From the NCBI GenBank assembly GCA_018335855.1, contig JAGXRM010000012.1, forward strand, positions 1-40,371: a stretch of DNA of 40,371 nt, written 5' to 3'. Below, piece by piece: positions 1 through 40,371 of this stretch (within the stretch, counting starts at the first letter, position 1; each line of letters starts with the position of its first letter). A program made the position numbers and the translations under genes. Origin of the DNA: Clostridiales bacterium (GTDB taxonomy: Bacteria; Bacillota; Dethiobacteria; Dethiobacterales; Dethiobacteraceae). The notes beneath the pieces are model-generated. The model worked only from the letters and a program-made list of their open reading frames with translations, did not search any database and was not told the origin of the DNA.

Positions 1-41
1 CCCGGAACAACAGGTATGGATACCACACAATCCAGATACAT
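1..41 (-). CDS. Transposase, N-terminal fragment at contig edge
   Basis: Reading leftward, an ATG at 41-39 is preceded by a GGAGG ribosome site at a normal distance and opens a frame encoding MYLDCVVSIPVVPG before the window ends. The same start appears in the right-hand copy at 40331. With 13-14 residues no domain can be identified; the assignment rests on its position inside the repeated element, behind a promoter and close to the terminus. The family call (IS1634-like) is a recollection of similar N-termini and is weak. Confidence 0.6.
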   Translation of the reverse strand, partial: MYLDCVVSIPVVP

Positions 42-88
42 AGAAGCCTCCTTTTCAGAGCCTTTTTGAGCGTCACTTTACACTCATA

Positions 89-117
89 ATTATACTATAT
101 ATCCAGTATTTTTGCAA
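89..117 (-). promoter_or_regulatory. IS transposase promoter (left copy)
   Basis: On the minus strand there is a TTGCAA box, a 17-base spacer and a perfect TATAAT. It lies about 48 bases before the transposase ATG and is mirrored exactly in the right-hand copy at 40255-40283. It drives transcription into the element, away from the interior of the window. Confidence 0.6.
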
Positions 118-191
118 TTGTTTTCGCGAGAAAAGTCAGTATTTTCAGTGGTTTTTAATGGCCTAAGAGCTTTTTTTCATGCACGGAGATA

Positions 192-1301
192 TTGAGTGAG
201 AAATATCACAGGAAGTTAAGGCATATACAGGACCTCAGGCAATTGGAAGAGATATTCCAGCATTTAGCACTGGATGGAACCAGAAAGAATGTTGCAACCA
301 CTGTTTTGTGTAGAATCGTAACCAGTATTGAGGAATTGAGAGAAGCAAGGGAAGATAGAACGGTGATTGATGCCGTCCTTGCCCAAGTGAAGGAGCAAAC
401 CATCAGTAGAGCATCGGAGCTACGTGACAGAGATGACTACAATCAAATGAATCGGGTGTTTAGGGCCTCACAGCAAAACTTCTCTAAGTTAAATCAAAAT
501 TACCCTGATGCGAATGTGTCGGATATATTAGACGAGATAAGAAGCATTGTTTCGTTGTATACATCCAGAAAGACTTCAAAATCAGTTGTCAAAGAAATGT
601 ATGCGAGCAGTTATATGAATGCAAAAGGGGTAAATAGGAGAGGAGACGATGACGAAGTGGGCAAACGGCAGCAGGTGTTGAAGTTGTTGCTTGACTATGC
701 TGGCGCGAGGGTTACGGACAATACAATTCCTTATCCCACATATCATCAGGTAGCTGCTTCCCAGTATAACGACGAAGTTTTTCATACCTATCAGGAGTTG
801 GGAGGAATTCTCCAAGCTTATCCGTTAAATATCCGTTCCTGGGACCTTGAAGTGAATGGTGTGGCCGTAGAACTGGATGAGGAACTGCACTTTAATCGGT
901 ATAGGGCAATATCTCTGCAATCTCCATTATACAAGTTGCTCCCCCATTTCGGTTTGCAAGAATACCGCAGCTATTGTGAGTTGTATGAGAATGAGTGCCT
1001 GAGGGCGGGTAGCTATGGTAAGAAATGGGCCAGCCCCAGCACAGAGGTACAGTTCGGTCATGCAGGCCAACCGCGAGACCTTGCAGGCAATGGTTCCCCA
1101 CGCTGGAAGCAAAGGGCTTTCTATGATTTCGTGAAGGATTTGTCTCCGCTTGTCATCAGCGTGCCTGTGGCTAGAATTTCTGTTTGGGATAAAGTTGATG
1201 TTGGTAGAGAAAAAGTATCCGTGGCAAAAATCTTAGATAGTAAAATGTATGATGCGGCAAATGAACTCCTACGCATTGTTCGATTCCGTGCAGGAGTATA
1301 A
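192..1301 (+). pseudogene. IS-truncated gene, DUF7255-like protein of unknown function
   Basis: The open frame starts at a TTG at 192 that lies inside the IS end. The first ten residues are IS-encoded, and native coding resumes at 222, so the original N-terminus is lost. About 360 residues of native sequence remain. The N-terminal half is charged and helical. The C-terminal half has a conserved-looking block with ELDEELHFNRYR (around residues 231-242) and WKQRAFYDFVKDL (around 306-318), which I associate with the DUF7255 family. The acidic and ELDEE-H pattern could be nuclease-like, but that is inference. A GGAG sequence (184-187) sits five bases upstream of the TTG, so the IS may supply a translation start and the fusion could still be expressed. 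No function is assigned. Confidence 0.55.
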
Positions 1302-24569: not shown

Positions 24570-24599
24570 GGAGGTGTGCCTGTTTACAACTGAATAGAA

Positions 24600-24734
24600 G
24601 CGCCAGAACACGCGAAGCGTGTTGACGAGGAGGAGGTTTATCGATTTTTCGGCGGATGCCTCCCGGCCGGGCCACGGCCGTAAGGGACTTTACAAAACCG
24701 GCAAGTAATTGCCGGCACAAAAAAGTTTCCGTGG
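24600..24734 (+). ncRNA. glmS ribozyme (glucosamine-6-phosphate-activated, self-cleaving)
   Basis: In the 209-base gap before glmS the conserved core is clear: cleavage site A|GCGCCAGAAC with G1 at 24600, a P2 hairpin (ACACGC / GCGTGT), TTGACGAGGAGGAGGTTTAT, then CGATTTTTCGGCGGATGCCT, then CCCGGC with GCCGTAAGGGAC, and a P4 hairpin (CCGGCAAGTAATTGCCGG). With glucosamine-6-phosphate as cofactor the RNA cuts itself and the downstream mRNA is degraded, giving feedback control of GlmS. Confidence 0.96.
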
Positions 24735-24778
24735 CTTATTAGTGTTCTTATAGAAATAGAAAGAAAGGGGACTTAAAT

Positions 24779-26605
24779 ATGTGTGGTATTGTTGGTTATA
24801 TCGGGGGGCAACAAGCCTACCCAATTTTGATAGAAGGTTTAAGTAAATTAGAATACCGGGGTTACGACTCCGCCGGGGTCGCACTCCTTTGTGAAGATCA
24901 TCTGGAAATGGTCAAATCTGTAGGCCGCCTCCGCGCCCTGGAAGAAAAGGTTGGAGCGACGGATCTGGTCGGTACCATCGGCATCGGTCATACCCGCTGG
25001 GCCACCCACGGGCGCCCCTGTGACGAGAATGCCCATCCTCACAGTGACTGTACCAACGAGTTTGTAGTTATCCACAACGGCATTATTGAGAACTACCAAT
25101 CCCTGCGGGAATGGCTTCAAAGTGAAGGCCACACTTTTCGTTCTGAAACAGATACGGAGGTACTGGCCCATCTCATCGAGCATTTTTACGAAGGTGACTT
25201 AAAAGAAGCCGTCCGCCTTGTGATTGACAAGGTAAAAGGCTCCTACGGCATGGTGGCGATGAGCCGTTACGAGCCGGACCGGCTCATCTGTGCCCGTAAA
25301 GACAGCCCCCTGGTAATCGGTCTGGGCGAAGGGGAAAACTTTATCGCCTCTGACATCCCCGCTTTACTCAAATACACCCGTCAGACCTTTATTCTTAACG
25401 ACGGCGAACTGGCCGATGTAACCCGGGACAGCGTCATCATTGAAAATGGTAATGGCGTGCCTATCGACAAAGAAATCATCCACATCGAGTGGGATGTACT
25501 CGCCGCAGAAAAAGACGGATATGAGCATTTCATGCTCAAGGAGATTCACGAACAACCCAAAGCAATCCGAGATACCCTCCGCAGCCGCATCACCGCAGAC
25601 GGCCTTGTAAACTTAGACGAAGTTAAATTAACAGCGGAGCAGACAAAGAACTTGCTCAAAGTGGTGATGGTTGCCTGCGGCACCGCGTACCACGCCGGTC
25701 TGGTTGGCAAATATGTCTTTGAAAAACTACTCCGTTTACCGGTTGAAGTAGACGTGGCGTCAGAATTCCGTTACCGTGATCCTCTCCTGGGTGAAGATAC
25801 TCTGGTTGTCGTTATCAGCCAATCCGGCGAAACCGCCGATACTCTGGCGGCCCTCCGCCTTGCTAAAGAAAAAGGCAGTCCAGTAGTGGCCGTGACGAAC
25901 GTAGTAGGAAGCACTGTATCCCGCGAAGCAGACCAGGTTATTTACACCTGGGCAGGTCCGGAAATTGCCGTCGCTTCCACCAAGGCATACACCACCCAGC
26001 TAATCGTACTCTATCTCCTAGCACTTCACCTTGGCCAACTTATGGAAGCCATCCCCAACGAAGAGGTAGTCCTTCTCACCCAGGAATTAACCCAACTACC
26101 CTCCCACGTGGATCAGATTCTGCGCCAGGCAAATGAACTCACCGAATTCACCAGTCGTCTCAGCCAGTGGGAAGATACCTTCTTCATCGGCCGCGGCCTG
26201 GATTACGCTGTAGCCCTGGAAGGCTCCCTGAAACTCAAAGAAATCTCCTATATCCACGCCGAAGCCTACGCCGCCGGCGAACTCAAGCACGGCACCCTGG
26301 CGCTGATTACCGAAAACATCCCGGTCATCGCTCTGGCAACCCAACCCCAGCTCTATGAAAAAATGTGGAGCAACATTAAAGAAGTGAAAGCCCGGGACGC
26401 CTACGTCCTAGCCATCGTTATGGAAGGGGACCGGGAAACCGGCAAAGAAGTGGACGCTGTGATTACTATCCCGGCTACAATCCCACTGCTTTCTCCGGTA
26501 CTGTCCGTCATCCCCCTGCAACTGCTGTCCTACTATGCCGCTGTACAGCGTGGTTGTGACGTTGATAAGCCAAGGAATCTGGCAAAAAGCGTAACTGTGG
26601 AATAG
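24779..26605 (+). CDS. glmS: Glutamine:fructose-6-phosphate aminotransferase GlmS
   Basis: Makes glucosamine-6-phosphate from fructose-6-phosphate and glutamine, the first step to UDP-GlcNAc. The 608-residue protein starts MCGIVGYIGG with the nucleophile Cys2 of the glutaminase domain, has HTRWATHG and HNGIIENY, then two SIS sugar-isomerase domains (ISQSGETADTLAALRLAKEK) and the invariant C-terminus DKPRNLAKSVTVE. Its last codons match the conserved stretch bound by TnsD in Tn7 targeting. The leader holds a glmS ribozyme. A sharp drop in GC begins right after the stop. Confidence 0.97.
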   Translation: MCGIVGYIGGQQAYPILIEGLSKLEYRGYDSAGVALLCEDHLEMVKSVGRLRALEEKVGATDLVGTIGIGHTRWATHGRPCDENAHPHSDCTNEFVVIHNGIIENYQSLREWLQSEGHTFRSETDTEVLAHLIEHFYEGDLKEAVRLVIDKVKGSYGMVAMSRYEPDRLICARKDSPLVIGLGEGENFIASDIPALLKYTRQTFILNDGELADVTRDSVIIENGNGVPIDKEIIHIEWDVLAAEKDGYEHFMLKEIHEQPKAIRDTLRSRITADGLVNLDEVKLTAEQTKNLLKVVMVACGTAYHAGLVGKYVFEKLLRLPVEVDVASEFRYRDPLLGEDTLVVVISQSGETADTLAALRLAKEKGSPVVAVTNVVGSTVSREADQVIYTWAGPEIAVASTKAYTTQLIVLYLLALHLGQLMEAIPNEEVVLLTQELTQLPSHVDQILRQANELTEFTSRLSQWEDTFFIGRGLDYAVALEGSLKLKEISYIHAEAYAAGELKHGTLALITENIPVIALATQPQLYEKMWSNIKEVKARDAYVLAIVMEGDRETGKEVDAVITIPATIPLLSPVLSVIPLQLLSYYAAVQRGCDVDKPRNLAKSVTVE

Positions 26606-26630
26606 TTAGCAGGCAGCCAATCAAAAAAAA

Positions 26631-26697
26631 TGATACTTTAAAATAAAGTTTTATCAATTAAAATATAGTTATATCATTTAAAAAAAAGTTCTATCAA
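26631..26697 (+). repeat. Three 20-bp tandem repeats 25 bases after glmS; candidate Tn7-like transposon end
   Basis: Three abutting imperfect copies of a 20-base unit lie at 26638-26657, 26658-26677 and 26678-26697, with consensus TTAAAAtaaAGTTnTATCAa. They are preceded by TGATACT at 26631, exactly 25 bases after the glmS stop, the classical Tn7 insertion distance. A run of A immediately precedes it, which would suit a 5-bp target duplication. Each unit resembles the AAAATA-GTT-C core of TnsB sites. The terminal trinucleotide is TGA rather than the usual TGT, and no tns gene is in view, so the identity is a hypothesis. Confidence 0.55.
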
Positions 26698-26740
26698 AAA
26701 GAGGTACTACTTCACTTGCTGAAGTAGTACCTCTTCTATT
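26696..26740. terminator. Strong hairpin terminator downstream of glmS
   Basis: A perfect 14-bp stem (GAGGTACTACTTCA / TGAAGTAGTACCTC) with a five-base loop, flanked by A and T/pyrimidine runs, so it can act in both directions. It separates glmS and the repeat array from the defence genes. Confidence 0.85.
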
Positions 26741-26814
26741 GCATCATACTATTAAATTAACTTTATTTTCGTTTTAATAAAGGATGTTGAACGTATATAT
26801 AGAAATATGGAAAT

Positions 26815-26852: not shown

Positions 26853-26903
26853 TAAATAATTAAAATGGTTCATAAAATCCATGCTTTAAGGAGGGAAGGG
26901 TCA

Positions 26904-28430
26904 GTGTTTAATTTTTTTAGAAGACAATCATATAAAGGTACTAGTATTAAAAATGAAGCCGTAACAATAGAAGAAAATTTACAATGCGAAGTAATTGCAG
27001 TTGAACCCGAGCATCTTGAACCTGAAATGCTGAAGAAAGAATTCACAGATAATTACATAACGCATCATCATTGTCTTAAGACTATCAATGTTGCATTTTC
27101 TATGTATCGGAAATTTTATTTCTATGAAGACATCGAGGATAGTACACTATATAAATTATTTGAATACTTATATTCATTAACTAGTGGTATTGATAGTATA
27201 GCTGAATATGAAAAGTTTATTGCGTCCGAGATTAAGCCGCTTTTCATGAATTTCTTTGGAAGCATTTACAATATCGAAGATAATTGGAATGTATTAGAAT
27301 CATTATATAGGAGCACCAATAATGGAAGTTATATACTAGAATATGCAACCTTTCAAAAATCTATATTAGATTTATACTCAGAAATAGAGGAAGCTCAAAA
27401 CGATATAATTGACCTAACCTTTCTCAGGAACCTCGTATTAGTTAAACTATTTGCTTGTGTTGTTGCACTTAATAGATTGTTTGTTATTTCCCGCAATCAA
27501 GATAAATTATTGAACCATGATGAATTAAATACTATAAGAGTTAATTTGCATGAACAGTTTAACGATGATTATAACATAATATTTGAAAAAATATCGCCTC
27601 TATATAATAAGTTTTATAACAAGGTTTTTGATGACCGCTTTACATGTTCTGATTTAATATGCCTTATCAGAATTATCAATGAAAAAGACCATAAGGGAGC
27701 ATTTCCATTTCTACATGAAGATTGTGACAGAATAATTATGCACCTACGAAAAACACATGACCAACTGGATTATGATATCATCGTTAAAGGATTACTAGAA
27801 TTTATACCTGAATATGATTGGAGCGGTCTTGCAAGAAAATTAGGAGTAGATATGACGGTAACATTTTATGTTTTTTATTCAACACTAATAGAAAAAGCAG
27901 TGCCGCTACTAAGTTTGGATGGATTGTATAAATCAATTTACTGTGATAATGATATAGCAAAAAAGTTTAAAGAATTTTATGAGGAACTCGAATTAATTCA
28001 AGAAAAAGAGCGTTACCTAAAAGGTGATTTTACAAAAGAGCATAATGAACTGGCATTTAATCTGGCTCGTAGTAATATTATAACTGGTGAGGAATTTGAA
28101 CTTTATATTAAATTTATTTTTGAGAAACTAGGTTATAACGTTGAGTTAACCAAAGCGACAGGTGACCAGGGCGCTGATTTAGTTCTCATGAAAGATAACG
28201 TTAAAACAGTTGTGCAAGCAAAATTTTATAATAATAGCGTAGGAAATAAGGCAGTTCAAGAAGTAGTAGCAGCTTTAAAAATTTACGATGCACAAATCGG
28301 AATTGTAGTAACTAATAATCGCTTTACAAAGGCCGCCATAGAACTTGCAGAGGCAAATAATATATATCTTATCGATTGTGACGGACTGGATTCATTGGTA
28401 AAAAGCATTTTAGATTTATCGACTACTTAA
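26904..28430 (+). CDS. Restriction endonuclease with C-terminal Mrr-type domain
   Basis: A 508-residue protein. The last 110 or so residues form a Mrr_cat PD-(D/E)xK nuclease: EEFELYIKFIFEKLGYNVEL, then GDQGADLVL with Asp425, then VVQAKFY with Gln438-x-Lys440, and a TNNRFTKAAIELAEAN strand-helix. The N-terminal 390 residues are helical and not recognised. The frame opens at an ATG (26865), but AAGGAGGG precedes a GTG at 26904 that gives the start MFNFFRRQSY; this is preferred. Mrr-type enzymes often cut modified or foreign DNA without a partner methyltransferase. It sits first in the AT-rich island after glmS and is probably monocistronic. Confidence 0.8.
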   Translation: MFNFFRRQSYKGTSIKNEAVTIEENLQCEVIAVEPEHLEPEMLKKEFTDNYITHHHCLKTINVAFSMYRKFYFYEDIEDSTLYKLFEYLYSLTSGIDSIAEYEKFIASEIKPLFMNFFGSIYNIEDNWNVLESLYRSTNNGSYILEYATFQKSILDLYSEIEEAQNDIIDLTFLRNLVLVKLFACVVALNRLFVISRNQDKLLNHDELNTIRVNLHEQFNDDYNIIFEKISPLYNKFYNKVFDDRFTCSDLICLIRIINEKDHKGAFPFLHEDCDRIIMHLRKTHDQLDYDIIVKGLLEFIPEYDWSGLARKLGVDMTVTFYVFYSTLIEKAVPLLSLDGLYKSIYCDNDIAKKFKEFYEELELIQEKERYLKGDFTKEHNELAFNLARSNIITGEEFELYIKFIFEKLGYNVELTKATGDQGADLVLMKDNVKTVVQAKFYNNSVGNKAVQEVVAALKIYDAQIGIVVTNNRFTKAAIELAEANNIYLIDCDGLDSLVKSILDLSTT

Positions 28431-28707: not shown

Positions 28708-30426
28708 ATGAGACTTAGCCAGGTAAGAATCGAAAATTATAGAAATTTAAGCGGTTTGTCAATGTCTTTTCACCCACTAGTTACATTTATTGTTGGAGAA
28801 AATAACCTAGGGAAAACAAATATTATTCATATGTTAGATATTTTATTTAATCAAACACGCTTTTATGAAGAAGATTTTTTTGACTCAACAAAGGCAATAG
28901 AAATTGAAATTCAATTTTTGATGTCAGAGATAGAAATTGGGTTATTTGAAGACCTATTCGACCCAGAGGGTGGGCATAGAATAAATATAGTTGCAAAACA
29001 GGAAAACCCTGATGAACCAATTGTATTTCATCATAAAGAGACAGGTACATACATTGAACAGAGTAGAGTTAAATGTATCAATTACGTACGGTATGATTCT
29101 TTAAGAAATCCAAGCCAAGAGCTTAACTTTAATAGTAGAAGAGGTGTTGGTAAAGTATTTGGTCATATTGTAAATGACTATATAAAGAAAAATGATTTGG
29201 ATGGTACTGATTTAATAAATGCAACATCTGTTGATGGCTTATTGGAAGATATTAATAGTAAGCTGTCTAAAATAAAGACACTTAAGGATTTTGAAATTAG
29301 TGCAGTTTTAGAAAGCAAAATAGAAGATATTCTTGCCAAACTAGTTGTACTGCAAGATGATAAAGGCTTTAAACTTGAAAAAGCTGGATATGGTATCCAA
29401 TTTTTATCTCTGTTTCCACTTGTAATACTGGAAAAAATCTTAAGTCTTAATAAAAAAAGATTTGCCAGAAGTTTATTTATTGATGAATCTAATAAAAGTT
29501 ATATGCCGATGCTTCTAGGTTTAGATGAGCCAGAGGTTCATTTACACCCATATATGCAACGAGCCTTAGTGAGGTACTTAATTAAAGTATTAAACAATAA
29601 AGATGAACAATTTAGTGACTTGGTGAAAATACTATATGGAATCGATAATATATCAGGGCAATTACTAATTACAACTCATTCACCAAATATTATTCTCGAT
29701 TCATATAAACATATAAACCATATCTACAAGGATACGGGGTTAAAGGTCAATTGCGGCACAGAGATACATTTGTCAGTAGCCGAAGAAAAACAATTATATA
29801 TGAATATGCCGTATATTAAAGAAGCTTTCTTCTCTAAATGTGTATTTCTTGTAGAAGGACAAAGTGAATTAGGGGCAGTCCCTATATTCGCTGAGAGAGA
29901 ACGTATAAATTTAGATGAATTAGGAATTAGCATTATACAGGCAGGAAGTGGAGATTCTATACCTCCTTTAGTTAGGTTGTTAAACCAATTTGGCATAAAA
30001 AATGTTTCAATAATAGATAAAGATAAGTTTGATGAAAAACCTGAACTATTTAAGGATATTACGAACTTATATCATACCGATGGAATTGACTTCGAGGAAG
30101 AAATATTTAATCACTTTTCGTTAACTGAGTATGTAAAATTTGTAGAAAATACAGAACCTGCACGGAGATGTTTTTTAGCTGGTGATGCTAAAAAACTTAA
30201 TATTGAGATTGATTACAGTCAAGAAACTCTTCATACGCAATTAGACCATGTAGACTCAGCTCTGATAAATCAGCTTAGGGAGTCATTAAAAGCAAAATGT
30301 ATTAGCAATCTCAGGAATAAGAAAAGTATTATATTTGGTAGGATTTTAGCGGAGAGCGTAACTAATATACCCAGTACATACATGCAAGCTCTTAGTAAAG
30401 CCAAGGAGATGGCACAAAATGTTTGA
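28708..30426 (+). CDS. gajA: Gabija nuclease GajA (OLD-family ATPase with TOPRIM domain)
   Basis: First subunit of the Gabija anti-phage system, a DNA-nicking nuclease regulated by nucleotide. The 572-residue protein has an ABC-type ATPase domain with Walker A GENNLGKTN (30-38), Walker B LLGLDEPEVHLH (269-280) and the His switch TTHSPN (322-327). A C-terminal TOPRIM domain carries the catalytic Glu383 (FLVEGQSELGA) and the DxD pair Asp437/Asp439 (IIDKDK). The length matches known GajA proteins. Start is ATG with AGAGGGG upstream. It overlaps gajB by eight bases. Other OLD-family nucleases paired with a UvrD helicase look similar, so the subtype name carries some doubt. Confidence 0.87.
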   Translation: MRLSQVRIENYRNLSGLSMSFHPLVTFIVGENNLGKTNIIHMLDILFNQTRFYEEDFFDSTKAIEIEIQFLMSEIEIGLFEDLFDPEGGHRINIVAKQENPDEPIVFHHKETGTYIEQSRVKCINYVRYDSLRNPSQELNFNSRRGVGKVFGHIVNDYIKKNDLDGTDLINATSVDGLLEDINSKLSKIKTLKDFEISAVLESKIEDILAKLVVLQDDKGFKLEKAGYGIQFLSLFPLVILEKILSLNKKRFARSLFIDESNKSYMPMLLGLDEPEVHLHPYMQRALVRYLIKVLNNKDEQFSDLVKILYGIDNISGQLLITTHSPNIILDSYKHINHIYKDTGLKVNCGTEIHLSVAEEKQLYMNMPYIKEAFFSKCVFLVEGQSELGAVPIFAERERINLDELGISIIQAGSGDSIPPLVRLLNQFGIKNVSIIDKDKFDEKPELFKDITNLYHTDGIDFEEEIFNHFSLTEYVKFVENTEPARRCFLAGDAKKLNIEIDYSQETLHTQLDHVDSALINQLRESLKAKCISNLRNKKSIIFGRILAESVTNIPSTYMQALSKAKEMAQNV

Positions 30427-32209
30427 TAATCAAGAACAAGTAAAAAAGAAAATTGAGGAGTTACATTCTGGTGATATTAAGCAGCTAGAGGCTATTTTTT
30501 CTGAAGCAAAAAAGCTAATTATTGAGGCACCAGCAGGTTACGGAAAAACAAAAACAATGATAAGTACAATTGCATACTTAATAGCATCAAAACAATTACT
30601 TTATCCCAAAAAAGTCCTAGCTTTAACTTTTAGCGTTAATTCAGCAATTAAAATTAAAAATGATATCGCACTTTATTTGCCAAATATGTTAGGGGTAGAT
30701 ATAAATTCTACGATAAAATTAAATGAAAAAGTTTTTATATCTAACTATCACGGATTCTGTAGGCATTTTCTCAAACTATATGGTTACTTAATGCATGAAA
30801 ACCTAGTATCCATAAATTCTCTGTCTTCTGTAGATGATAGTAGCGCCCAACACTTGAACTCATTAGATATTGGACTAAGTCTTGATGAAATAAATCTTTT
30901 AACTAGAATAAGTGAAGCAATTAAGAGCTATGATATTGATATTCTAAATAAAGAATGGCTGGAATATACAAATATAGTTTTGAACAAGTTTATAACTAAT
31001 AATTTCATTACTTATAATGCAATCATTCTTTTAGTCATAAAATGCTTAGTTGAACATCCGACTATCAAAGAGTTTTATCAAAAGTTTTTTCCAATAATTA
31101 TAGTTGATGAATTTCAAGATACTAACGCAATTAGTTGGAGGTTGCTACGGGAATTAACTAATGAGAAGACTCGGCTAATACTTATGGGTGACTCTTTACA
31201 ACGAATATATGGCTTTATCGGAGCAATACCAAGCCTATTAAGTAAAGCACAAAAAATATATGAAGCAGAAAAAATACAGCTTGAAAAAAATTATCGATTT
31301 AAGGACAATCCACAAATGTTATTGCTTGATAAAAATATCAGAGCAAATGCTGAAAATCCATCAAATCCAGAAATTAATGAGTCAGCTAGAATTCCATACA
31401 GGCTGTTCCAAACTCAGATAGAAGAGTCTTCTTGGGTTGCAGAAAAGATATGGGAATTAATTCGCTCAGGTGATAATGTAAGAATAGCTATCTTAGTTCA
31501 ACAACGGAGTAGTAACATTGAAGTAATTATGGATACTTTAAGTTCCAGTGGGGTTGATTATTTTTTTGGACTTTTCAGGGATGATGACAGTGAATATATA
31601 AGATTCCATATGCAGAGTTTACTATTATTTAGAGACATTATAAAAAATAAGGCGACTATTTCTAAAGTCTTATTATCAAAATTTTATAAGATGGTTAAAG
31701 ATGAACTTAAAGACCAGGACTCCCCAACATATAACTCTTTATTAGCATTATTGCAGATTTTTATAAATAAGATTGGTGAATTAGTTTTTCTTACATCCGA
31801 AGAAAAAACTACACTAATCATAGAAACTCTTGAAAATAGAGCGTTAAAGCAAAATATGGAGCATGTTAGCAGCAATGTTTTGATTTCCACCGTTCATGGT
31901 GCCAAAGGGCTTGAATGGGACTATGTTATTCTGCCAGACATGGAGCAGTTTCTTTTCCCGAACTATCCGAGTCTATGTGGAATGTGTCGCTCTCGTTTTA
32001 CAAATCCTTGCGAGTTTATTCTTACGCCATCACTTGAAGATACCTTTCTTGCCGAATTAAGTGTCTTCTATGTAGCAGTAACAAGAGCAAGGAAACAAGT
32101 GTTCTTTTCAGGAAGTAAATATAGATTGGATAGGGATGGCAATGAACAACAAGCAAAGCCGAGTTGTTTAGTTCGGCTACCTGGAATCGTGTTGGATGAA
32201 GAAGAATAA
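30419..32209 (+). CDS. gajB: Gabija helicase-like protein GajB (UvrD/Rep family)
   Basis: Second Gabija subunit, a superfamily 1 helicase-like ATPase thought to sense nucleic acid ends and activate GajA. The 596 residues include Walker A APAGYGKT (37-44), YHGFCRHF (motif Ia region), the Walker B motif VDEFQDTN, MGDSLQRIYGF (motif III), EKNYRF (motif IV) and, near the C-terminus, STVHGAKGLEWDYVILPD and FYVAVTRAR (motifs V and VI). It is about 100 residues longer than the reference GajB and carries a cysteine cluster C520-x2-C523-x7-C531 between motifs V and VI, which might bind a metal. Translation is coupled to gajA by overlap. Confidence 0.87.
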   Translation: MFDNQEQVKKKIEELHSGDIKQLEAIFSEAKKLIIEAPAGYGKTKTMISTIAYLIASKQLLYPKKVLALTFSVNSAIKIKNDIALYLPNMLGVDINSTIKLNEKVFISNYHGFCRHFLKLYGYLMHENLVSINSLSSVDDSSAQHLNSLDIGLSLDEINLLTRISEAIKSYDIDILNKEWLEYTNIVLNKFITNNFITYNAIILLVIKCLVEHPTIKEFYQKFFPIIIVDEFQDTNAISWRLLRELTNEKTRLILMGDSLQRIYGFIGAIPSLLSKAQKIYEAEKIQLEKNYRFKDNPQMLLLDKNIRANAENPSNPEINESARIPYRLFQTQIEESSWVAEKIWELIRSGDNVRIAILVQQRSSNIEVIMDTLSSSGVDYFFGLFRDDDSEYIRFHMQSLLLFRDIIKNKATISKVLLSKFYKMVKDELKDQDSPTYNSLLALLQIFINKIGELVFLTSEEKTTLIIETLENRALKQNMEHVSSNVLISTVHGAKGLEWDYVILPDMEQFLFPNYPSLCGMCRSRFTNPCEFILTPSLEDTFLAELSVFYVAVTRARKQVFFSGSKYRLDRDGNEQQAKPSCLVRLPGIVLDEEE

Positions 32210-33011: not shown

Positions 33012-36000
33012 ATGGTGGTGATAAAGTTGAAAATCCCTAAAGTATTAGACAACAAGAAAGACAAAGTAGTTGATGAACTAAGAGCGGAACTAACGAAAGG
33101 CTCTAAGCTATCAGTTATTTCAGCGTATTTTACCATATATGCATATGCTGAGCTTAAAAGGGAGTTAAGTAAGATTGATAATATGCGGTTTATATTTACA
33201 GAACCAACCTTTGTTAAGAAAGACAGAGAGTTGATTCGTGAGTTCTATATAGAGCACACAAATGAAAAAATAGTATCAGGCAATGAGTTTGAAATCAAAT
33301 TAAGGAATGAAATGAAACAAGCTTTCATTGCAAGAGAGTGTGCAGCATGGCTTACGGAAAAAGCAGAGATAAAATCATTAAAGAAATCTAATCCAGCTCA
33401 ACCCAGGTTGGTTTACATAGAAAATAGTGATGAGAATATATCAATAAATGGTACTGTTGATTTCACTTCTGACGGGTTGGGTATTACACCTTCCAACAGA
33501 TTGGACAGCAATATGTGTTTATATGGCAAGGAGTATACCATTGGTTTTTTGCAGGCTTTTAATGAGCTTTGGGATGATGCAACGACTGTAGAAGATGTAA
33601 AACAAAAAGTGCTTGAACAAATGCAAATTCTCTATAAAGAGAATACACCAGAGTTCATTTACTTTGTAACCCTATACAATATTTTTAATGATTACCTTGA
33701 TGAGCTCACAGAGGACAATATTATTAAAAGCAGGACGGGTTTTAAGGAAACTATTATTTGGAACAAGTTATATAAGTTTCAGAAAGACGGAGTAATGGGT
33801 GCAATAGACAAAATAGAGAAATACAATGGATGTATTATTGCTGATAGTGTTGGTTTGGGTAAAACTTTTACTGCTTTGGCTGTGATAAAATACTATGAGC
33901 TTAGGAATGACAGGGTCCTTGTATTAGTACCAAAAAAGCTAAGTGAAAACTGGACTATCTATACACAAAATGACAAGAGAAATATATTTGTGCAGGATAG
34001 ATTTAATTATGACGTACTTAATCATACCGACTTAAGCAGGACATCGGGTATGTCTGGGGTTATCAACCTTTCTACTATAAATTGGTCAAATTATGACCTA
34101 ATAGTCATTGATGAGAGTCATAATTTCAGAAACAACCCGCCTGTAAAGGGCAGAGTAACCAGATACGAAAGGTTAATGAACGATATTATTAAATCAGGTG
34201 TAAAAACAAAGGTTTTAATGCTTTCTGCCACGCCTGTAAATAATCGTATGAATGATATAAAGAATCAGATAGCATTTATTACAGAAGGTACGAATAATGC
34301 TTTTGCGAGAGTAGGACTAAACAATTTAGAGCTAATCTTAAGACAAGCTCAAACTGTATTTAATAAATGGTCTATCCTACCTGATGCCGAAAGGACTACA
34401 GAATCCTTTGTCAACATGATGAATTTAGACTATTTCAAGCTTTTAGATACCGTCACCATTGCACGCTCAAGAAAGCACATTGAGAAGTACTATAATTTGG
34501 ACGAGATAGGTAAGTTCCCAACAAGATTATCTCCAAAAAATATTTACCCAGAGATTGATACTAAAGGGGAATTCCCTCCTATTGGGAATATCAATAAACT
34601 TATTAAGAAGCTTACCCTCTGCGTTTATTCTCCTTTGGGATACGTTTTGCCTGAAAAGCGTTATGCATATGAACAAAAGTATGATATGGAAGTGGGGGTT
34701 AATAATAGCGTCTTCAGGCAGGTGGACCGTGAGCAAAGCTTGGTTGGCTTAATGCGTATCGGTATATTAAAACGTATGGAAAGCTCTATTCATTCTTTCG
34801 CCTTAACAGTTGACAAAGTCCTCTACAAGATAAATAAAACATTGGAAAAAATAGACCAGCACCAGTTTGAGTATGATGCTGAAACAGACATTAATGATAT
34901 AGATATCGACGACCCTGAATTTGACAGTCTGATGTTTGGAAATAATGTCAAGGTTTTATTGCAGGATATGGATTTAATCAAATGGAAGCAAGACCTTCTA
35001 TCTGATAAAGACAAGCTTGAAACCATATACCTTGAAGCAATTAATGTATCCCCTGACAGAGATGCAAAGCTAGTGAAATTAAAAGAACTGATACAGAATA
35101 AAATTCAGCATCCTATTAACCAATACAATCGAAAATTGCTAATTTTTACTGCTTTTGCGGATACTGCGGAATATTTGTATGCCAATATTGCAACTGAACT
35201 GAATAAAGCGGCGGTGTATACAGCATTGGTAACGGGTAGTGGGGAAAACCACTCTACCCTGCCAATAAGTAAAGACCAAAAAAAGAGCATCAGAATATCA
35301 GACCTAAATACTGTTCTGACGCTCTTCTCACCTGTTTCTAAAGAATGTGAAAAGATATTCCCTGAAGCTACGAATTATATTGATGTGATAATTGCTACTG
35401 ACTGTATATCAGAAGGACAGAATCTACAGGACTGCGACTATCTTATCAACTACGATATTCATTGGAATCCCGTGCGCATTATTCAAAGATTTGGTCGTAT
35501 TGACCGCATAGGCTCAAAAAATGAAGTTATACAATTAGTAAACTTCTGGGCTACCAAGGACCTGGATGAGTATATTAATCTACAGCAGCGTGTTCGTGGC
35601 AGGATGGTGCTGTTGGATGTATCTGCAACAGGTGAGGAAAATGTAATCGAGGCCGATGAAAGCAAAGAAATGAAAGACCTTGAGTATCGTAGAAAGCAAC
35701 TAAAAAGGTTACAAGATGAAGTTGTGGATTTGGAAGAAATATCGGGAGGAATCTCTATTACCGACCTTACCTTCAACGACTTCAAGATAGACCTTATGGG
35801 GTACATGAAAGACAACAGAAAATCTTTGGATGAAGCTCCAAACGGTATGTATGCTGTGGTAGAAATAAGTGATAGCCTGCGTGATGAAATTAAGCCTGGG
35901 GTAATCTTTACATTAAGGCAGATAGAAGGCCATGAGCAGATAAAAGAACAAAATGCCCTATTCCCTTATTATATGGTATATGTGACGGATGATGAGGTTA

Positions 36001-36290
36001 GGTTCTCTTTTATTCATTCCAAAAAGATACTGGACTATTATAAAAAGCTTTGCTCTGGTTGCAATGAAATTTGCAGAGAGTTGGTTGACGAGTTTAATAC
36101 GGAGACACAAAATGGCCTTAGCATGAAACGTTATTCTAATTTGCTGGAAACGTCCATTCAAAATCTGGTTGGAAAGAAACAAGAGATAGGCGTGGCCAGC
36201 TTATTCAGTAAGGGCGGGACTACAATGCTGAAGGAACTCTATGAGGGGATAGAGGACTTTGAGCTTGTCACGTTTTTGGTAATGAAATAA
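33012..36290 (+). CDS. PLD-like/SNF2-family helicase of a type III-like defence operon
   Basis: A 1092-residue protein. The N-terminal 200 residues resemble a PLD-like fold (VISAYFTIYAYAELKREL, and GTVDFTSDGLG in place of an HKD motif). A SNF2/superfamily 2 helicase follows: Walker A DSVGLGKT (about 278-285), DESHNFRN (about 366), LSATPVNNR, and motif VI QRFGRIDRIGS (about 824). It probably translocates on DNA as an ATP-driven motor. It leads a tightly packed operon with DUF4391, a type III Mod methyltransferase and Res. Start is ATG 33012 or, with GGTGGT better spaced, TTG 33027. I know this four-gene neighbourhood from other genomes but cannot give it an accepted system name. Confidence 0.82.
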   Translation: MVVIKLKIPKVLDNKKDKVVDELRAELTKGSKLSVISAYFTIYAYAELKRELSKIDNMRFIFTEPTFVKKDRELIREFYIEHTNEKIVSGNEFEIKLRNEMKQAFIARECAAWLTEKAEIKSLKKSNPAQPRLVYIENSDENISINGTVDFTSDGLGITPSNRLDSNMCLYGKEYTIGFLQAFNELWDDATTVEDVKQKVLEQMQILYKENTPEFIYFVTLYNIFNDYLDELTEDNIIKSRTGFKETIIWNKLYKFQKDGVMGAIDKIEKYNGCIIADSVGLGKTFTALAVIKYYELRNDRVLVLVPKKLSENWTIYTQNDKRNIFVQDRFNYDVLNHTDLSRTSGMSGVINLSTINWSNYDLIVIDESHNFRNNPPVKGRVTRYERLMNDIIKSGVKTKVLMLSATPVNNRMNDIKNQIAFITEGTNNAFARVGLNNLELILRQAQTVFNKWSILPDAERTTESFVNMMNLDYFKLLDTVTIARSRKHIEKYYNLDEIGKFPTRLSPKNIYPEIDTKGEFPPIGNINKLIKKLTLCVYSPLGYVLPEKRYAYEQKYDMEVGVNNSVFRQVDREQSLVGLMRIGILKRMESSIHSFALTVDKVLYKINKTLEKIDQHQFEYDAETDINDIDIDDPEFDSLMFGNNVKVLLQDMDLIKWKQDLLSDKDKLETIYLEAINVSPDRDAKLVKLKELIQNKIQHPINQYNRKLLIFTAFADTAEYLYANIATELNKAAVYTALVTGSGENHSTLPISKDQKKSIRISDLNTVLTLFSPVSKECEKIFPEATNYIDVIIATDCISEGQNLQDCDYLINYDIHWNPVRIIQRFGRIDRIGSKNEVIQLVNFWATKDLDEYINLQQRVRGRMVLLDVSATGEENVIEADESKEMKDLEYRRKQLKRLQDEVVDLEEISGGISITDLTFNDFKIDLMGYMKDNRKSLDEAPNGMYAVVEISDSLRDEIKPGVIFTLRQIEGHEQIKEQNALFPYYMVYVTDDEVRFSFIHSKKILDYYKKLCSGCNEICRELVDEFNTETQNGLSMKRYSNLLETSIQNLVGKKQEIGVASLFSKGGTTMLKELYEGIEDFELVTFLVMK

Positions 36291-36304: not shown

Positions 36305-37030
36305 TTGGATGATTATGGGTACTTCAATATCCCACAGTCTTGTGTGGTCAAGAACACTATCTTCAAAAGACTGTTCTATGAAAATACAGATTTAGGCCCT
36401 GCTGATAAGAAACTATTTACTGATGTCATAAACAAGATAACCTGGCTTTACTGCTTAAAACCTGAAACAGTTAATATACAATCCTACAAGGATGATATAC
36501 GGGAGTACGTAGAAATAGAGTTTCTGGAAATTAAGCTTGAAGAAGATAAAAAGACAGACAGAATCGCAGAAATCATCATGAGAACTATACCCTACCCTAT
36601 GGTACTGATATTTGAATTGCATGATAGGGTAAAGCTTAATGTAGCACATCAAAGGATGAGTTTAAACGACAGCAGTAAAAATACTATCGAAGAATTTATA
36701 AGTACCGACTGGATTGATAAAGGTGGCTCACTATTTGATAAATTGGACATTCGAAAAATGAGGTTTACAAACTTTTACGCACTATATAGCGATATAGTTG
36801 ATACCATCAGTATTTATAATGCTTCCAATATACTTCCCGCTAAATCTGATTTAACAGGCGAAGAGGCTAGAGAATTATTAAGCAGTATTGAAGCTATAGA
36901 ACAAGACATAACTTCTTTAAAAGCAAAATTAAAGAAAGAAACACAGTTCAATCGTAAGATGGAAATGAATATTGAGATTAAGAAGCTGGAGAAAGAAATG
37001 ATAAATATCGCAGGAGGAGCTATAAAATGA
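36305..37030 (+). CDS. DUF4391 protein
   Basis: A 241-residue protein of the DUF4391 family, recognised by its start (YGYFNIPQSCVVKNTIFKRL, DKKLFTDVINKITWLYCLKP) and the EYVEIEFLEIKLEE strand. The C-terminal third is a predicted coiled coil (IEQDITSLKAKLKKETQFNR). The function is not established; the family is found with this helicase and Mod/Res genes, so it is probably a structural or regulatory partner. TTG start at 36305 with GGGGTGAT upstream. It is 14 bases after the helicase gene and its stop overlaps the mod start (ATGA, 37027-37030). Confidence 0.85.
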   Translation: MDDYGYFNIPQSCVVKNTIFKRLFYENTDLGPADKKLFTDVINKITWLYCLKPETVNIQSYKDDIREYVEIEFLEIKLEEDKKTDRIAEIIMRTIPYPMVLIFELHDRVKLNVAHQRMSLNDSSKNTIEEFISTDWIDKGGSLFDKLDIRKMRFTNFYALYSDIVDTISIYNASNILPAKSDLTGEEARELLSSIEAIEQDITSLKAKLKKETQFNRKMEMNIEIKKLEKEMINIAGGAIK

Positions 37031-38946
37031 CAGATACTAATCTAAACGGAAAGACCCCTGACATTGCAGAGGAAAACATACAGAGGTTACGACAATTATT
37101 TCCAGATGTATTTACAGAGGCGAAGATTGATTTTGAGAAGTTACAGCAAGTTTTAGGTAATTATATAGAAACTAGTAATGAGAGATACAATTTTACTTGG
37201 AATGGTAAAGCAAAGGCTTTACGCCTAGCACAAACACCATCAATGGGAACATTACGTCCTTGTAAGGAAGAAAGTAAGGATTGGGATACAACACAAAACC
37301 TCTATATTGAGGGGGATAATCTTGAAGTATTAAAGCTATTACAAAAGAGTTATCATGGCAAAGTGAAAATGATTTATATTGACCCACCCTATAATACAGG
37401 TAGGGACTTTGTATATCCTGATAATTTTACTGACAGCATAGGGAACTATAAAGCTATTACAGGTCAAATGGATGCACACGGAAAAAATATAAGTAGCAAT
37501 AGCGAAACAAGTGGTCGCTATCATACAGATTGGTTAAATATGATGTATCCACGATTAAGATTGGCTAGAAATTTACTGAAAGATAACGGTGCGATATTCA
37601 TTTCGATTGATGATAATGAAATTGATAATCTAAAGAAATTATGCAATGAAGTCTATGGTGAGGAAAACTTTATTGCCCAATTTCCTTGGCAGTCAAGGCA
37701 ATCTATTCAAAATGATACTGATATAAGTTATAGTCATGAATATGTTGTAGCGTATGCTAAGAATCGTAGACTTGAAAACAGAAGATTAAAAGAAACAAAT
37801 GCTAATACTTGGTTTAAATTAGATAGTTTCGTATGCTTACCATTACCTTTAGATAAGGAAAAGTTTGAAAACAATGATAATGACCCCCGTGGATTATGGA
37901 AAGCAGACCCTTTTGATGCACCGAATGTAAGACCTAATTTGACATATGTAATTAAAAATCCCAGTACAGGTGAAGAGTATTTGCCTCCAAATGGTCGTTG
38001 TTGGAGAACTGAGCAAAGCTCTTATGAAAAATTATTAGCTGATAATCGTATAGTCTTTGGAAAGACAGGACAATCAAGACCTCAGCTTAAAGTTTTCTAT
38101 GAAGAAAAGAAAATGTTTGGTTCGATAGACAATACTTGGTGGACAGGCGAAAAATGTGGAACATCTACACAAGGTACGAAAGAGATAATGAACATGTTTG
38201 ATGGCAAGGCTCCTTTTGATACACCAAAACCAACTAAACTGTTATCGAAAATTATATCTTTGGTTTCGCTTCCATGTGATGGTGATATAATTTTAGATTT
38301 CTTTTCTGGTTCTGCAACTACCGCTCATGCAACAATGCTTATGAATGTATTAAATGGAGCAGAAGCAAATAGAAGATTCATTATGGTCCAATTACCTGAA
38401 CCTACGGATGAAAAAAGTGAAGCCCACAAAGAAGGCTATATAAATATTTGCGAAATAGGCAAAGAACGCATCCGCAGGGCAGGAGAAAAAATAAGGGAAG
38501 AAAAAGGATTGGATGTACAAAATCTTGATATAGGATTTAAGGTATTAAAGCTGGATAGTAGTAATATTCGTAAATGGCAACCTGACTATAAAAATTTAGA
38601 AACTAGCTTAATGGAATACATTGATAACTATGTAGAGGGTAGAACAGAATTAGATGTTGTATATGAAATTATGGTTAAATATGGTCTTGACCTAACATAT
38701 CCTGTAGATAAATTTGTAATAGCTAATAAAGAAGTTTATTCAATCGGTTTTGGGATGCTTATTATTTGTTTAGCTAATGAAATAACAATCGATATTGCAA
38801 AGGGTATTTTAGAAATTGTAAAAGAGTTAGAACCAGAAACCACAAGAATCGTATTTAAGGATAATGGATTTAAAACAGATAGTAATAAAACCAATATTAA
38901 AGAAATCTTAAAATGCGGCGGCATTGATGAATTTATTACTCTATAG
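37027..38946 (+). CDS. mod: Type III DNA methyltransferase Mod subunit
   Basis: A 639-residue adenine methyltransferase. Motif IV DPPYN lies at 119-123 (YIDPPYNTGRDFVYPDNFTD), FISIDDNE follows, and motif I LDFFSGSATTAHA lies near 422-434, the order and spacing of type III Mod proteins. The region between (around 210-400) should hold target recognition. Mod methylates one strand of an asymmetric site and is also needed for cleavage by Res. It is co-translated with the DUF4391 gene. Because Res is interrupted in this window, Mod may act here as an orphan methyltransferase, possibly with the helicase. Confidence 0.92.
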   Translation: MTDTNLNGKTPDIAEENIQRLRQLFPDVFTEAKIDFEKLQQVLGNYIETSNERYNFTWNGKAKALRLAQTPSMGTLRPCKEESKDWDTTQNLYIEGDNLEVLKLLQKSYHGKVKMIYIDPPYNTGRDFVYPDNFTDSIGNYKAITGQMDAHGKNISSNSETSGRYHTDWLNMMYPRLRLARNLLKDNGAIFISIDDNEIDNLKKLCNEVYGEENFIAQFPWQSRQSIQNDTDISYSHEYVVAYAKNRRLENRRLKETNANTWFKLDSFVCLPLPLDKEKFENNDNDPRGLWKADPFDAPNVRPNLTYVIKNPSTGEEYLPPNGRCWRTEQSSYEKLLADNRIVFGKTGQSRPQLKVFYEEKKMFGSIDNTWWTGEKCGTSTQGTKEIMNMFDGKAPFDTPKPTKLLSKIISLVSLPCDGDIILDFFSGSATTAHATMLMNVLNGAEANRRFIMVQLPEPTDEKSEAHKEGYINICEIGKERIRRAGEKIREEKGLDVQNLDIGFKVLKLDSSNIRKWQPDYKNLETSLMEYIDNYVEGRTELDVVYEIMVKYGLDLTYPVDKFVIANKEVYSIGFGMLIICLANEITIDIAKGILEIVKELEPETTRIVFKDNGFKTDSNKTNIKEILKCGGIDEFITL

Positions 38947-39714: not shown

Positions 39715-40209
39715 ATGAAACTACAATTTAATGCAGATTTAGTACATCAAGCACGAGCAATATCTTCTATTGTTGATATATTCATAGGACAAACACCAAT
39801 GCAGTCTAACTTTACTGTATCAGCCTATACAGGACAAATTGGGATGTACGACAGTGCTAACGGTATTGGTAACAGGCTTGAACTTGATGAAGACGAAATA
39901 TTAGAAAATTTACAAGAAATTCAACTAAGAAATGGTCTTCCACAAACAAAAGCTTTAAAAGTCGGGCAATATGATTTCGATGTGGAAATGGAAACTGGAA
40001 CGGGTAAAACCTATGTGTATCTCCGTACAATATTTGAACTTCATAAAAACTATGGGTTTTCGAAGTTTATTATTGTTGTACCTAGCATTGCGATTAAAGA
40101 AGGTGTTTACAAGTCTTTAGAGATTACAAATGAACATTTTAAAGGTTTATCCTTAACTTCCTGTGATATTTCTCACTCAATATCTCCGTGCATGAAAAAA
40201 AGCTCTTAG
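39715..40209 (+). pseudogene. res: Type III restriction Res subunit, cut by IS insertion
   Basis: N-terminal part of the DEAD/DEAH helicase-nuclease Res. Native sequence runs from the ATG at 39715 (GGGGGG ribosome site) to 40150 and includes the ALKVGQYDFDVEMETGTGKT Walker A region (80-99) and FIIVVPSIAIKEGVYKSLEI (motif Ia). After EHFKGL, at 40151, the IS end begins and adds about 19 foreign residues before a TAG at 40207-40209. Helicase motifs II-VI and the nuclease domain are absent here, so no cleavage activity is expected. The rest of the gene would lie beyond the IS. Confidence 0.9.
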
Positions 40210-40254
40210 GCCATTAAAAACCACTGAAAATACTGACTTTTCTCGCGAAAACAA

Positions 40255-40283
40255 TTGCAAAAATACTGGATATATAGTATAAT
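40255..40283 (+). promoter_or_regulatory. IS transposase promoter (right copy)
   Basis: TTGCAA at 40255-40260, a 17-base spacer and TATAAT at 40278-40283, about 48 bases before the transposase start. Confidence 0.6.
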
Positions 40284-40330
40284 TATGAGTGTAAAGTGAC
40301 GCTCAAAAAGGCTCTGAAAAGGAGGCTTCT

Positions 40331-40371
40331 ATGTATCTGGATTGTGTGGTATCCATACCTGTTGTTCCGGG
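40331..40371 (+). CDS. Transposase, N-terminal fragment at contig edge
   Basis: ATG at 40331 with GGAGG at 40321-40325; the frame encodes MYLDCVVSIPVVPG up to the window end. It is the same as the fragment at the left edge. Too short for a domain call; the position in the element and the promoter support a transposase. Confidence 0.6.
   Translation, partial: MYLDCVVSIPVVP

What the first reader, a model, noticed from the sequence alone, without database searches (positions are those of the whole stretch)
26606..26700. Possible Tn7-like transposon end at attTn7, with a defence island as cargo
The glmS C-terminal codons match the stretch TnsD recognises. Exactly 25 bases after the stop, three abutting 20-bp repeats start behind TGATACT, in a layout like TnsB-binding sites at a Tn7 end. 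A possible partial inverted copy (AACTTTATTTT) is at 26759-26769. GC content falls sharply from this point, and only restriction and anti-phage genes follow. The sequence shows repeats, distance and composition shift; the Tn7 link is inference.
Basis: partly seen in the sequence, partly recalled or inferred. Interest (0 to 1): 0.75.

Follow-up and report, generated by a model that had tools for sequence, protein, structure and literature searches.

The report
Tn7-like transposon carrying a defence island
A mobile element of about 45 kb, related to the transposon Tn7, has inserted at its usual safe site just after the essential gene glmS and carries a set of anti-phage systems; this is a clear new example of something already well described, with one mildly unusual feature, a second TnsD-like targeting protein where relatives have TnsE.

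Summary
The 20-bp repeats are real: three abutting copies 25 bases after the glmS stop. The opposite end is on another contig of the same genome (C44). It has three inverted, spaced copies of the same site, a 23/26 terminal match and AAAAA on both flanks. Beside it lie intact tnsA, tnsB, tnsC and tnsD plus a second tnsD-like gene, with catalytic residues conserved. The two contigs join through an insertion sequence that splits one type III restriction gene and duplicates TTTAT. A same-genus relative has no insertion and keeps the downstream gene order.

The cargo comprises an Mrr-type nuclease, Gabija, a helicase/DUF4391/type III restriction-modification cluster, Wadjet type III and a JAB-E1 operon. 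Tn7-like elements carrying defence cargo, and dual tnsD loci, are already published, so this is a new member of a known kind. The unusual points are that the TnsE slot holds a shortened TnsD paralogue and that the cargo lies between the right end and tnsA.

The parts
24588..24740 (+). glmS ribozyme upstream of glmS (host)
   Evidence: Rfam RF00234, 122 bits, E 2.5e-29
24779..26605 (+). glmS, 608 aa; its last codons (LAKSVTVE) lie in the conserved 3' coding end that Tn7 TnsD is known to bind
   Evidence: ORF; glmS homology and 3' end in relatives; TnsD site from PMC2918618
26606..26630 (.). Spacer between glmS stop and element; last 5 bases AAAAA = candidate target-site duplication (26626-26630)
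   Evidence: Sequence; AAAAA also at the C44 side, C44:29862-29866
26631..26696 (+). Right (glmS-proximal) transposon end: terminal TGATACT and three abutting 20-bp TnsB-type sites (26637, 26657, 26677)
26699..26736 (+). Strong hairpin immediately inside the end; possible replacement glmS terminator
   Evidence: -24.3 kcal/mol, 0 of 200 shuffles as good; similar hairpins at 4 of 5 other glmS-type right ends, Tn7 included; not called a terminator by the pattern scan
26865..28430 (+). Cargo: Mrr-type restriction nuclease, 521 aa
   Evidence: Pfam Mrr_cat E 1.4e-28
28708..30426 (+). Cargo: Gabija GajA
   Evidence: PADLOC PDLC00085 E 6e-192
30419..32209 (+). Cargo: Gabija GajB
   Evidence: PADLOC PDLC00107 E 3e-213
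33012..36290 (+). Cargo: SNF2-type helicase (C3a139-like)
   Evidence: PADLOC PDLC01075 E 1.4e-138
36305..37030 (+). Cargo: DUF4391 protein
   Evidence: Pfam E 9.7e-71
37027..38946 (+). Cargo: type III DNA methyltransferase
   Evidence: PADLOC PDLC03634 E 3.5e-228
39715..40150 (+). Cargo: 5' part of type III restriction enzyme gene, split by an insertion sequence; its 3' part is on C44 (ORF C44:385-2823)
   Evidence: Same HMM PDLC03647: positions 1-144 here, 176-983 on C44; flanking TTTAT duplicated
40151..40371 (.). End of the insertion sequence at which the contig breaks; 4 exact copies of this end in the genome (another at window 1-219)

Best explanation
The feature is the right end of a Tn7-like cut-and-paste transposon inserted at attTn7. 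The element runs from window 26631 to the contig end, through an unassembled insertion sequence, and on to C44:29861: 43.6 kb plus the unseen middle of that insertion sequence. Shown by sequence: both ends, the 5-base AAAAA flanks, intact tnsABCD plus a second TnsD-like gene, and the glmS-proximal position. Inferred from Tn7: TnsD binds the conserved end of glmS and recruits TnsC; TnsB binds the three packed sites at this end and the three spaced sites at the other; TnsA and TnsB excise the element and join it about 25 bases after glmS in one orientation, leaving glmS intact. The element carries anti-phage and anti-plasmid systems as cargo. The second TnsD-like protein sits where relatives have TnsE and is probably a second target selector.
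For: TnsA, TnsC, TnsD and TniQ domains above Pfam cut-offs. TnsB matches Tn7 TnsB 7pik over residues 16-672 with E 5.7e-68, far better than any CAST TnsB. Tn7 catalytic residues are conserved: TnsA E63/D114/K132, TnsB D273/D361/E396, TnsC Walker A and B. Three sites at 20-bp spacing at one end and three at 66- and 75-bp spacing at the other, in inverted orientation, with 23/26 terminal identity and AAAAA on both flanks. The contigs are joined by a split type III restriction gene and the TTTAT duplication, and by synteny with the same-genus genome G001, where glmS is followed by the genes found at C44:40742 onward. Other glmS-adjacent elements of the phylum have the same kind of packed repeats after glmS.
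Against: The element is not on one contig, so the join through the insertion sequence is inferred. The AAAAA flanks lie in poly-A runs, so the exact duplication is ambiguous. The nearest conserved downstream gene lies 10.9 kb beyond the distal end, behind host-like CobN/DUF3793 genes absent from that place in G001, so no base-exact empty site was found. The hairpin lacks a good U tract. No transposition was observed.
Confidence: 0.95

Rival explanations
1. The repeats are a leftover end of a decayed element, and the defence genes are an unrelated island that accumulated after glmS.
For: A decayed case may exist in the same class: in L084 repeats and a TnsB piece follow glmS at a contig end. 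The type III restriction gene here is broken by an insertion sequence.
Against: Both ends match each other, tnsABCD are intact with catalytic residues, and the island lies exactly between the ends.
Confidence: 0.03
2. A CRISPR-associated transposon with TnsD for glmS and a small TniQ for RNA-guided insertion (type I-B1-like).
For: Two TniQ-family genes, one of them glmS-type TnsD; I-B1 elements have this pair (PMC11406308).
Against: None of the element proteins scanned hits a cas family and no CRISPR-like repeat array is present; TnsA and TnsB are separate genes and TnsB is nearest Tn7 TnsB.
Confidence: 0.02
3. A sub-rival on one part only: the second TnsD-like gene is a decaying duplicate without function, and the element has a single targeting route.
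For: Long branch in the tree (1.59 against 0.89 for TnsD) and about 145 residues missing relative to TnsD.
Against: Open frame of 468 aa, zinc-finger Cys/His positions and conserved C-terminal motifs kept, start directly after the tnsD stop.
Confidence: 0.3

Closest known systems
Tn7 (E. coli, plasmid R721 copy, L109)
   Same: Packed TnsB sites at the right end and spaced sites at the left; right end is the glmS-proximal one; hairpin just inside the right end; tnsABCD order; conserved catalytic residues.
   Different: Three rather than four right-end sites; cargo lies between the right end and tnsA instead of beyond the tns operon; no TnsE found, a TnsD paralogue in its slot; about 45 kb against 14 kb; defence rather than resistance cargo.
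Bacillota Tn7-like elements with TnsE (Staphylococcus pLEW6932, L087; also L078, L080 at glmS in genomes of the window's phylum)
   Same: 31-38% identity of TnsB, TnsC and TnsD, 41-47% of TnsA, packed repeats after glmS in L078 and L080.
   Different: In L078 and L080 tnsA lies next to the right end; TnsE follows TnsD in all three.
Defence-carrying Tn7-like transposons surveyed in PMC8649781
   Same: Restriction-modification, Gabija and ImmA-type genes are among the listed cargo.
   Different: Wadjet was listed there only for Pro and Act; this element combines several systems.
Dual TniQ-TnsD Tn7-like loci (PMC10293859)
   Same: Tandem tnsD-type genes; 998 dual loci reported, attributed to in situ duplication.
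   Different: No cas genes here; the second protein is 468 aa, larger than the substantially smaller second protein usual in dual loci.

Membership tests
Tn7-like transposon (Tn7 branch) | TnsB DDE transposase of Tn7 type | tested here: met
   7pik E 5.7e-68; D273, D361, E396 conserved
Tn7-like transposon (Tn7 branch) | TnsA endonuclease with catalytic E/D/K | tested here: met
   Pfam TnsA N and C domains; E63, D114, K132 conserved
Tn7-like transposon (Tn7 branch) | TnsC AAA+ ATPase and TniQ/TnsD selector | tested here: met
Tn7-like transposon (Tn7 branch) | Arrays of inverted TnsB-type sites at both ends | tested here: met
   3 + 3 sites, opposite orientation; TnsB binding itself not tested
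Tn7-like transposon (Tn7 branch) | 5-bp target-site duplication | tested here: inconclusive
   AAAAA on both sides, but inside poly-A runs
attTn7 insertion | Insertion about 20-25 bp after the glmS stop, right end proximal | tested here: met
   25 bases; the glmS-proximal end is the packed one and lies upstream of tns
attTn7 insertion | Site without insertion in a relative | tested here: met
   G001 glmS is followed by genes found at C44:40742 onward; gene-order level only, not base-exact
Tn7 proper | TnsE | tested here: not met
   No hit of two TnsE sequences in the element, while hits in L075, L078, L080, L081, L086; HMM finds none in the genome, but its control did not ring
CRISPR-associated transposon | cas effector genes and CRISPR array in the element | tested here: not met
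Tn7-like transposon (Tn7 branch) | Transposition activity | not testable with these tools
   Needs an assay

The most novel reading that the evidence does not exclude
The TnsD paralogue in the TnsE slot (C44:26888-28294), lacking the zinc-ribbon/HTH insert of its neighbour TnsD, is a second protein-only target selector that replaced TnsE and sends the defence island to mobile plasmids or another fixed site.
Probability: 0.45. Interest if true: 0.45.

Novelty: new member of a known kind. Interest (0 to 1): 0.3.

Why it matters
It shows how a multi-system defence island reached this genome as one mobile unit, with exact ends and a neutral attachment site. The swap of TnsE for a TnsD paralogue gives a concrete, testable case of a protein-only second targeting route. 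The recurring hairpin just inside the right end suggests that these elements bring their own glmS terminator.

Tried and rejected
CRISPR-guided insertion: no cas genes, no array. Right-flank DNA as an empty-site probe: no match in the relatives searched, the intergenic DNA is too diverged; gene order was used instead. The inverted 26759-26769 motif as a fourth site: only the core matches, not pursued. A named close relative of the element by genome-contig scan: only a distant Amphritea locus. A TniQ2 orthologue in 398 genomes of the phylum and in plasmids: only ordinary TnsDs at about 34% identity or less over the core. C44:29862-40741 as a second stacked element: contents are host-like CobN, DUF3793 and FAD genes and no second end was noticed.

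Full report
Observation. The glmS frame ends at 26605; 25 bases later the sequence TGATACT opens three abutting 20-bp copies (26637, 26657 and 26677). The three-in-a-row score of 33/40 is beyond 2000 shuffles of the same region (maximum 26). A 21-base stretch of the repeat occurs, at up to three mismatches, at only two places in the 2.96-Mb genome: here, and inverted at C44:29843-29863. GC drops from about 0.50 to about 0.30-0.35 here.

Opposite end. On C44 three inverted copies lie 66 and 75 bp apart, the outermost end at C44:29861. The first 26 bases of the two ends agree at 23 positions, and AAAAA flanks each end. Packed sites beside glmS and spaced sites at the far end are the layout of the Tn7 right and left ends as described in PMC11406308 and as read from the Tn7 copy in R721 (L109).

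Transposition genes. C44:20502-28294 holds five adjacent or overlapping genes: TnsA (278 aa), TnsB (710), TnsC (553), TnsD (584) and a second TniQ/TnsD protein (468 aa). TnsB resembles Tn7 TnsB along nearly its whole length (7pik, E 5.7e-68). The catalytic residues of TnsA and TnsB and the Walker motifs of TnsC are present. The genes look intact.

One element on two contigs. The window ends inside an insertion sequence of which four exact end copies exist in the genome. The type III restriction gene breaks at 40150 and resumes on C44 after base 290: the parts match positions 1-144 and 176-983 of one model and TTTAT is duplicated at the insertion sequence. In the same-genus genome G001 glmS is followed by the genes that here stand at C44:40742 onward. 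C12 and C44 therefore most likely flank one insertion. The 10.9 kb between the distal end and that gene is host-like (CobN, DUF3793). The element measures 43.6 kb plus the unseen middle of the insertion sequence.

Cargo. From right end to left end: Mrr-type nuclease; Gabija GajA/GajB; helicase, DUF4391 and type III methyltransferase with the split type III nuclease; RDD and TPR proteins; Wadjet type III JetD, JetA, JetB, JetC; a minus-strand set with JAB-E1, an unassigned 185-aa protein, an M78 peptidase, an HTH protein and a sigma factor; then tns. PMC8649781 lists restriction-modification, Gabija and ImmA-type genes as frequent Tn7-like cargo, with median element lengths of 14-29 kb and the longest 140 kb. 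The cargo is ordinary in kind.

Second TnsD-like protein. It is 33% identical to the neighbouring TnsD but lacks about 145 residues that hold a CxC-type zinc-ribbon-like stretch and a helix-turn-helix-like segment (the domain names are my reading of the sequence). In a tree it falls in one supported clade with the element's own TnsD and five others, on a long branch. TnsE sequences hit relatives L075, L078, L080, L081 and L086 but not this element. Dual tnsD loci are known: 998 reported, attributed to duplication and new function (PMC10293859). My reading, an inference, is that it is a second target selector that took the place of TnsE.

Hairpin inside the right end. A 16-bp stem starts a few bases after the last site (-24.3 kcal/mol, no shuffle as good). 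Comparable hairpins with unrelated sequences sit at the same place in Tn7, L078, L080 and L086, but not in L084. Tn7 is reported to insert into the glmS terminator (Gay et al. 1986, seen as a title only), so such hairpins may replace it. This one has a poor U tract and is not called a terminator by the scan; the role is a guess.

Verdict. A Tn7-like transposon at attTn7 with defence cargo: supported at 0.95, new member of a known kind, interest 0.3.

Noticed in passing
26699-26736; also L109 (Tn7), L078, L080, L086: Strong hairpins of unrelated sequence lie directly inside the right end at five of six Tn7-type right ends examined; possibly a replacement glmS terminator.
   Followed up: partly
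C44:14377-18153 (L008/L009), minus strand: Operon of a JAB-E1 fusion, a 185-aa protein without a Pfam match (looks by eye like a ubiquitin-like/E2 protein), an M78 peptidase, an HTH protein and a sigma factor; perhaps an uncharacterised ubiquitin-like defence system.
   Followed up: partly
24588-24740: glmS ribozyme (RF00234) upstream of glmS.
   Followed up: yes
L084 (G095, same class), 9448 onward: glmS followed by TnsB-site-like repeats and a TnsB piece at the contig end: another Tn7-like insertion or remnant at the same site in the class.
   Followed up: partly
L075/L083 (G395 contig C5): Two separate tns operons about 11 kb apart on one contig, i.e. perhaps stacked Tn7-like elements.
   Followed up: no
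40151-40371, 1-219 and C44:1-290: Insertion sequence with CCTTAACTTCCTG ends that breaks several contigs and disrupts the type III restriction gene of the cargo.
   Followed up: partly
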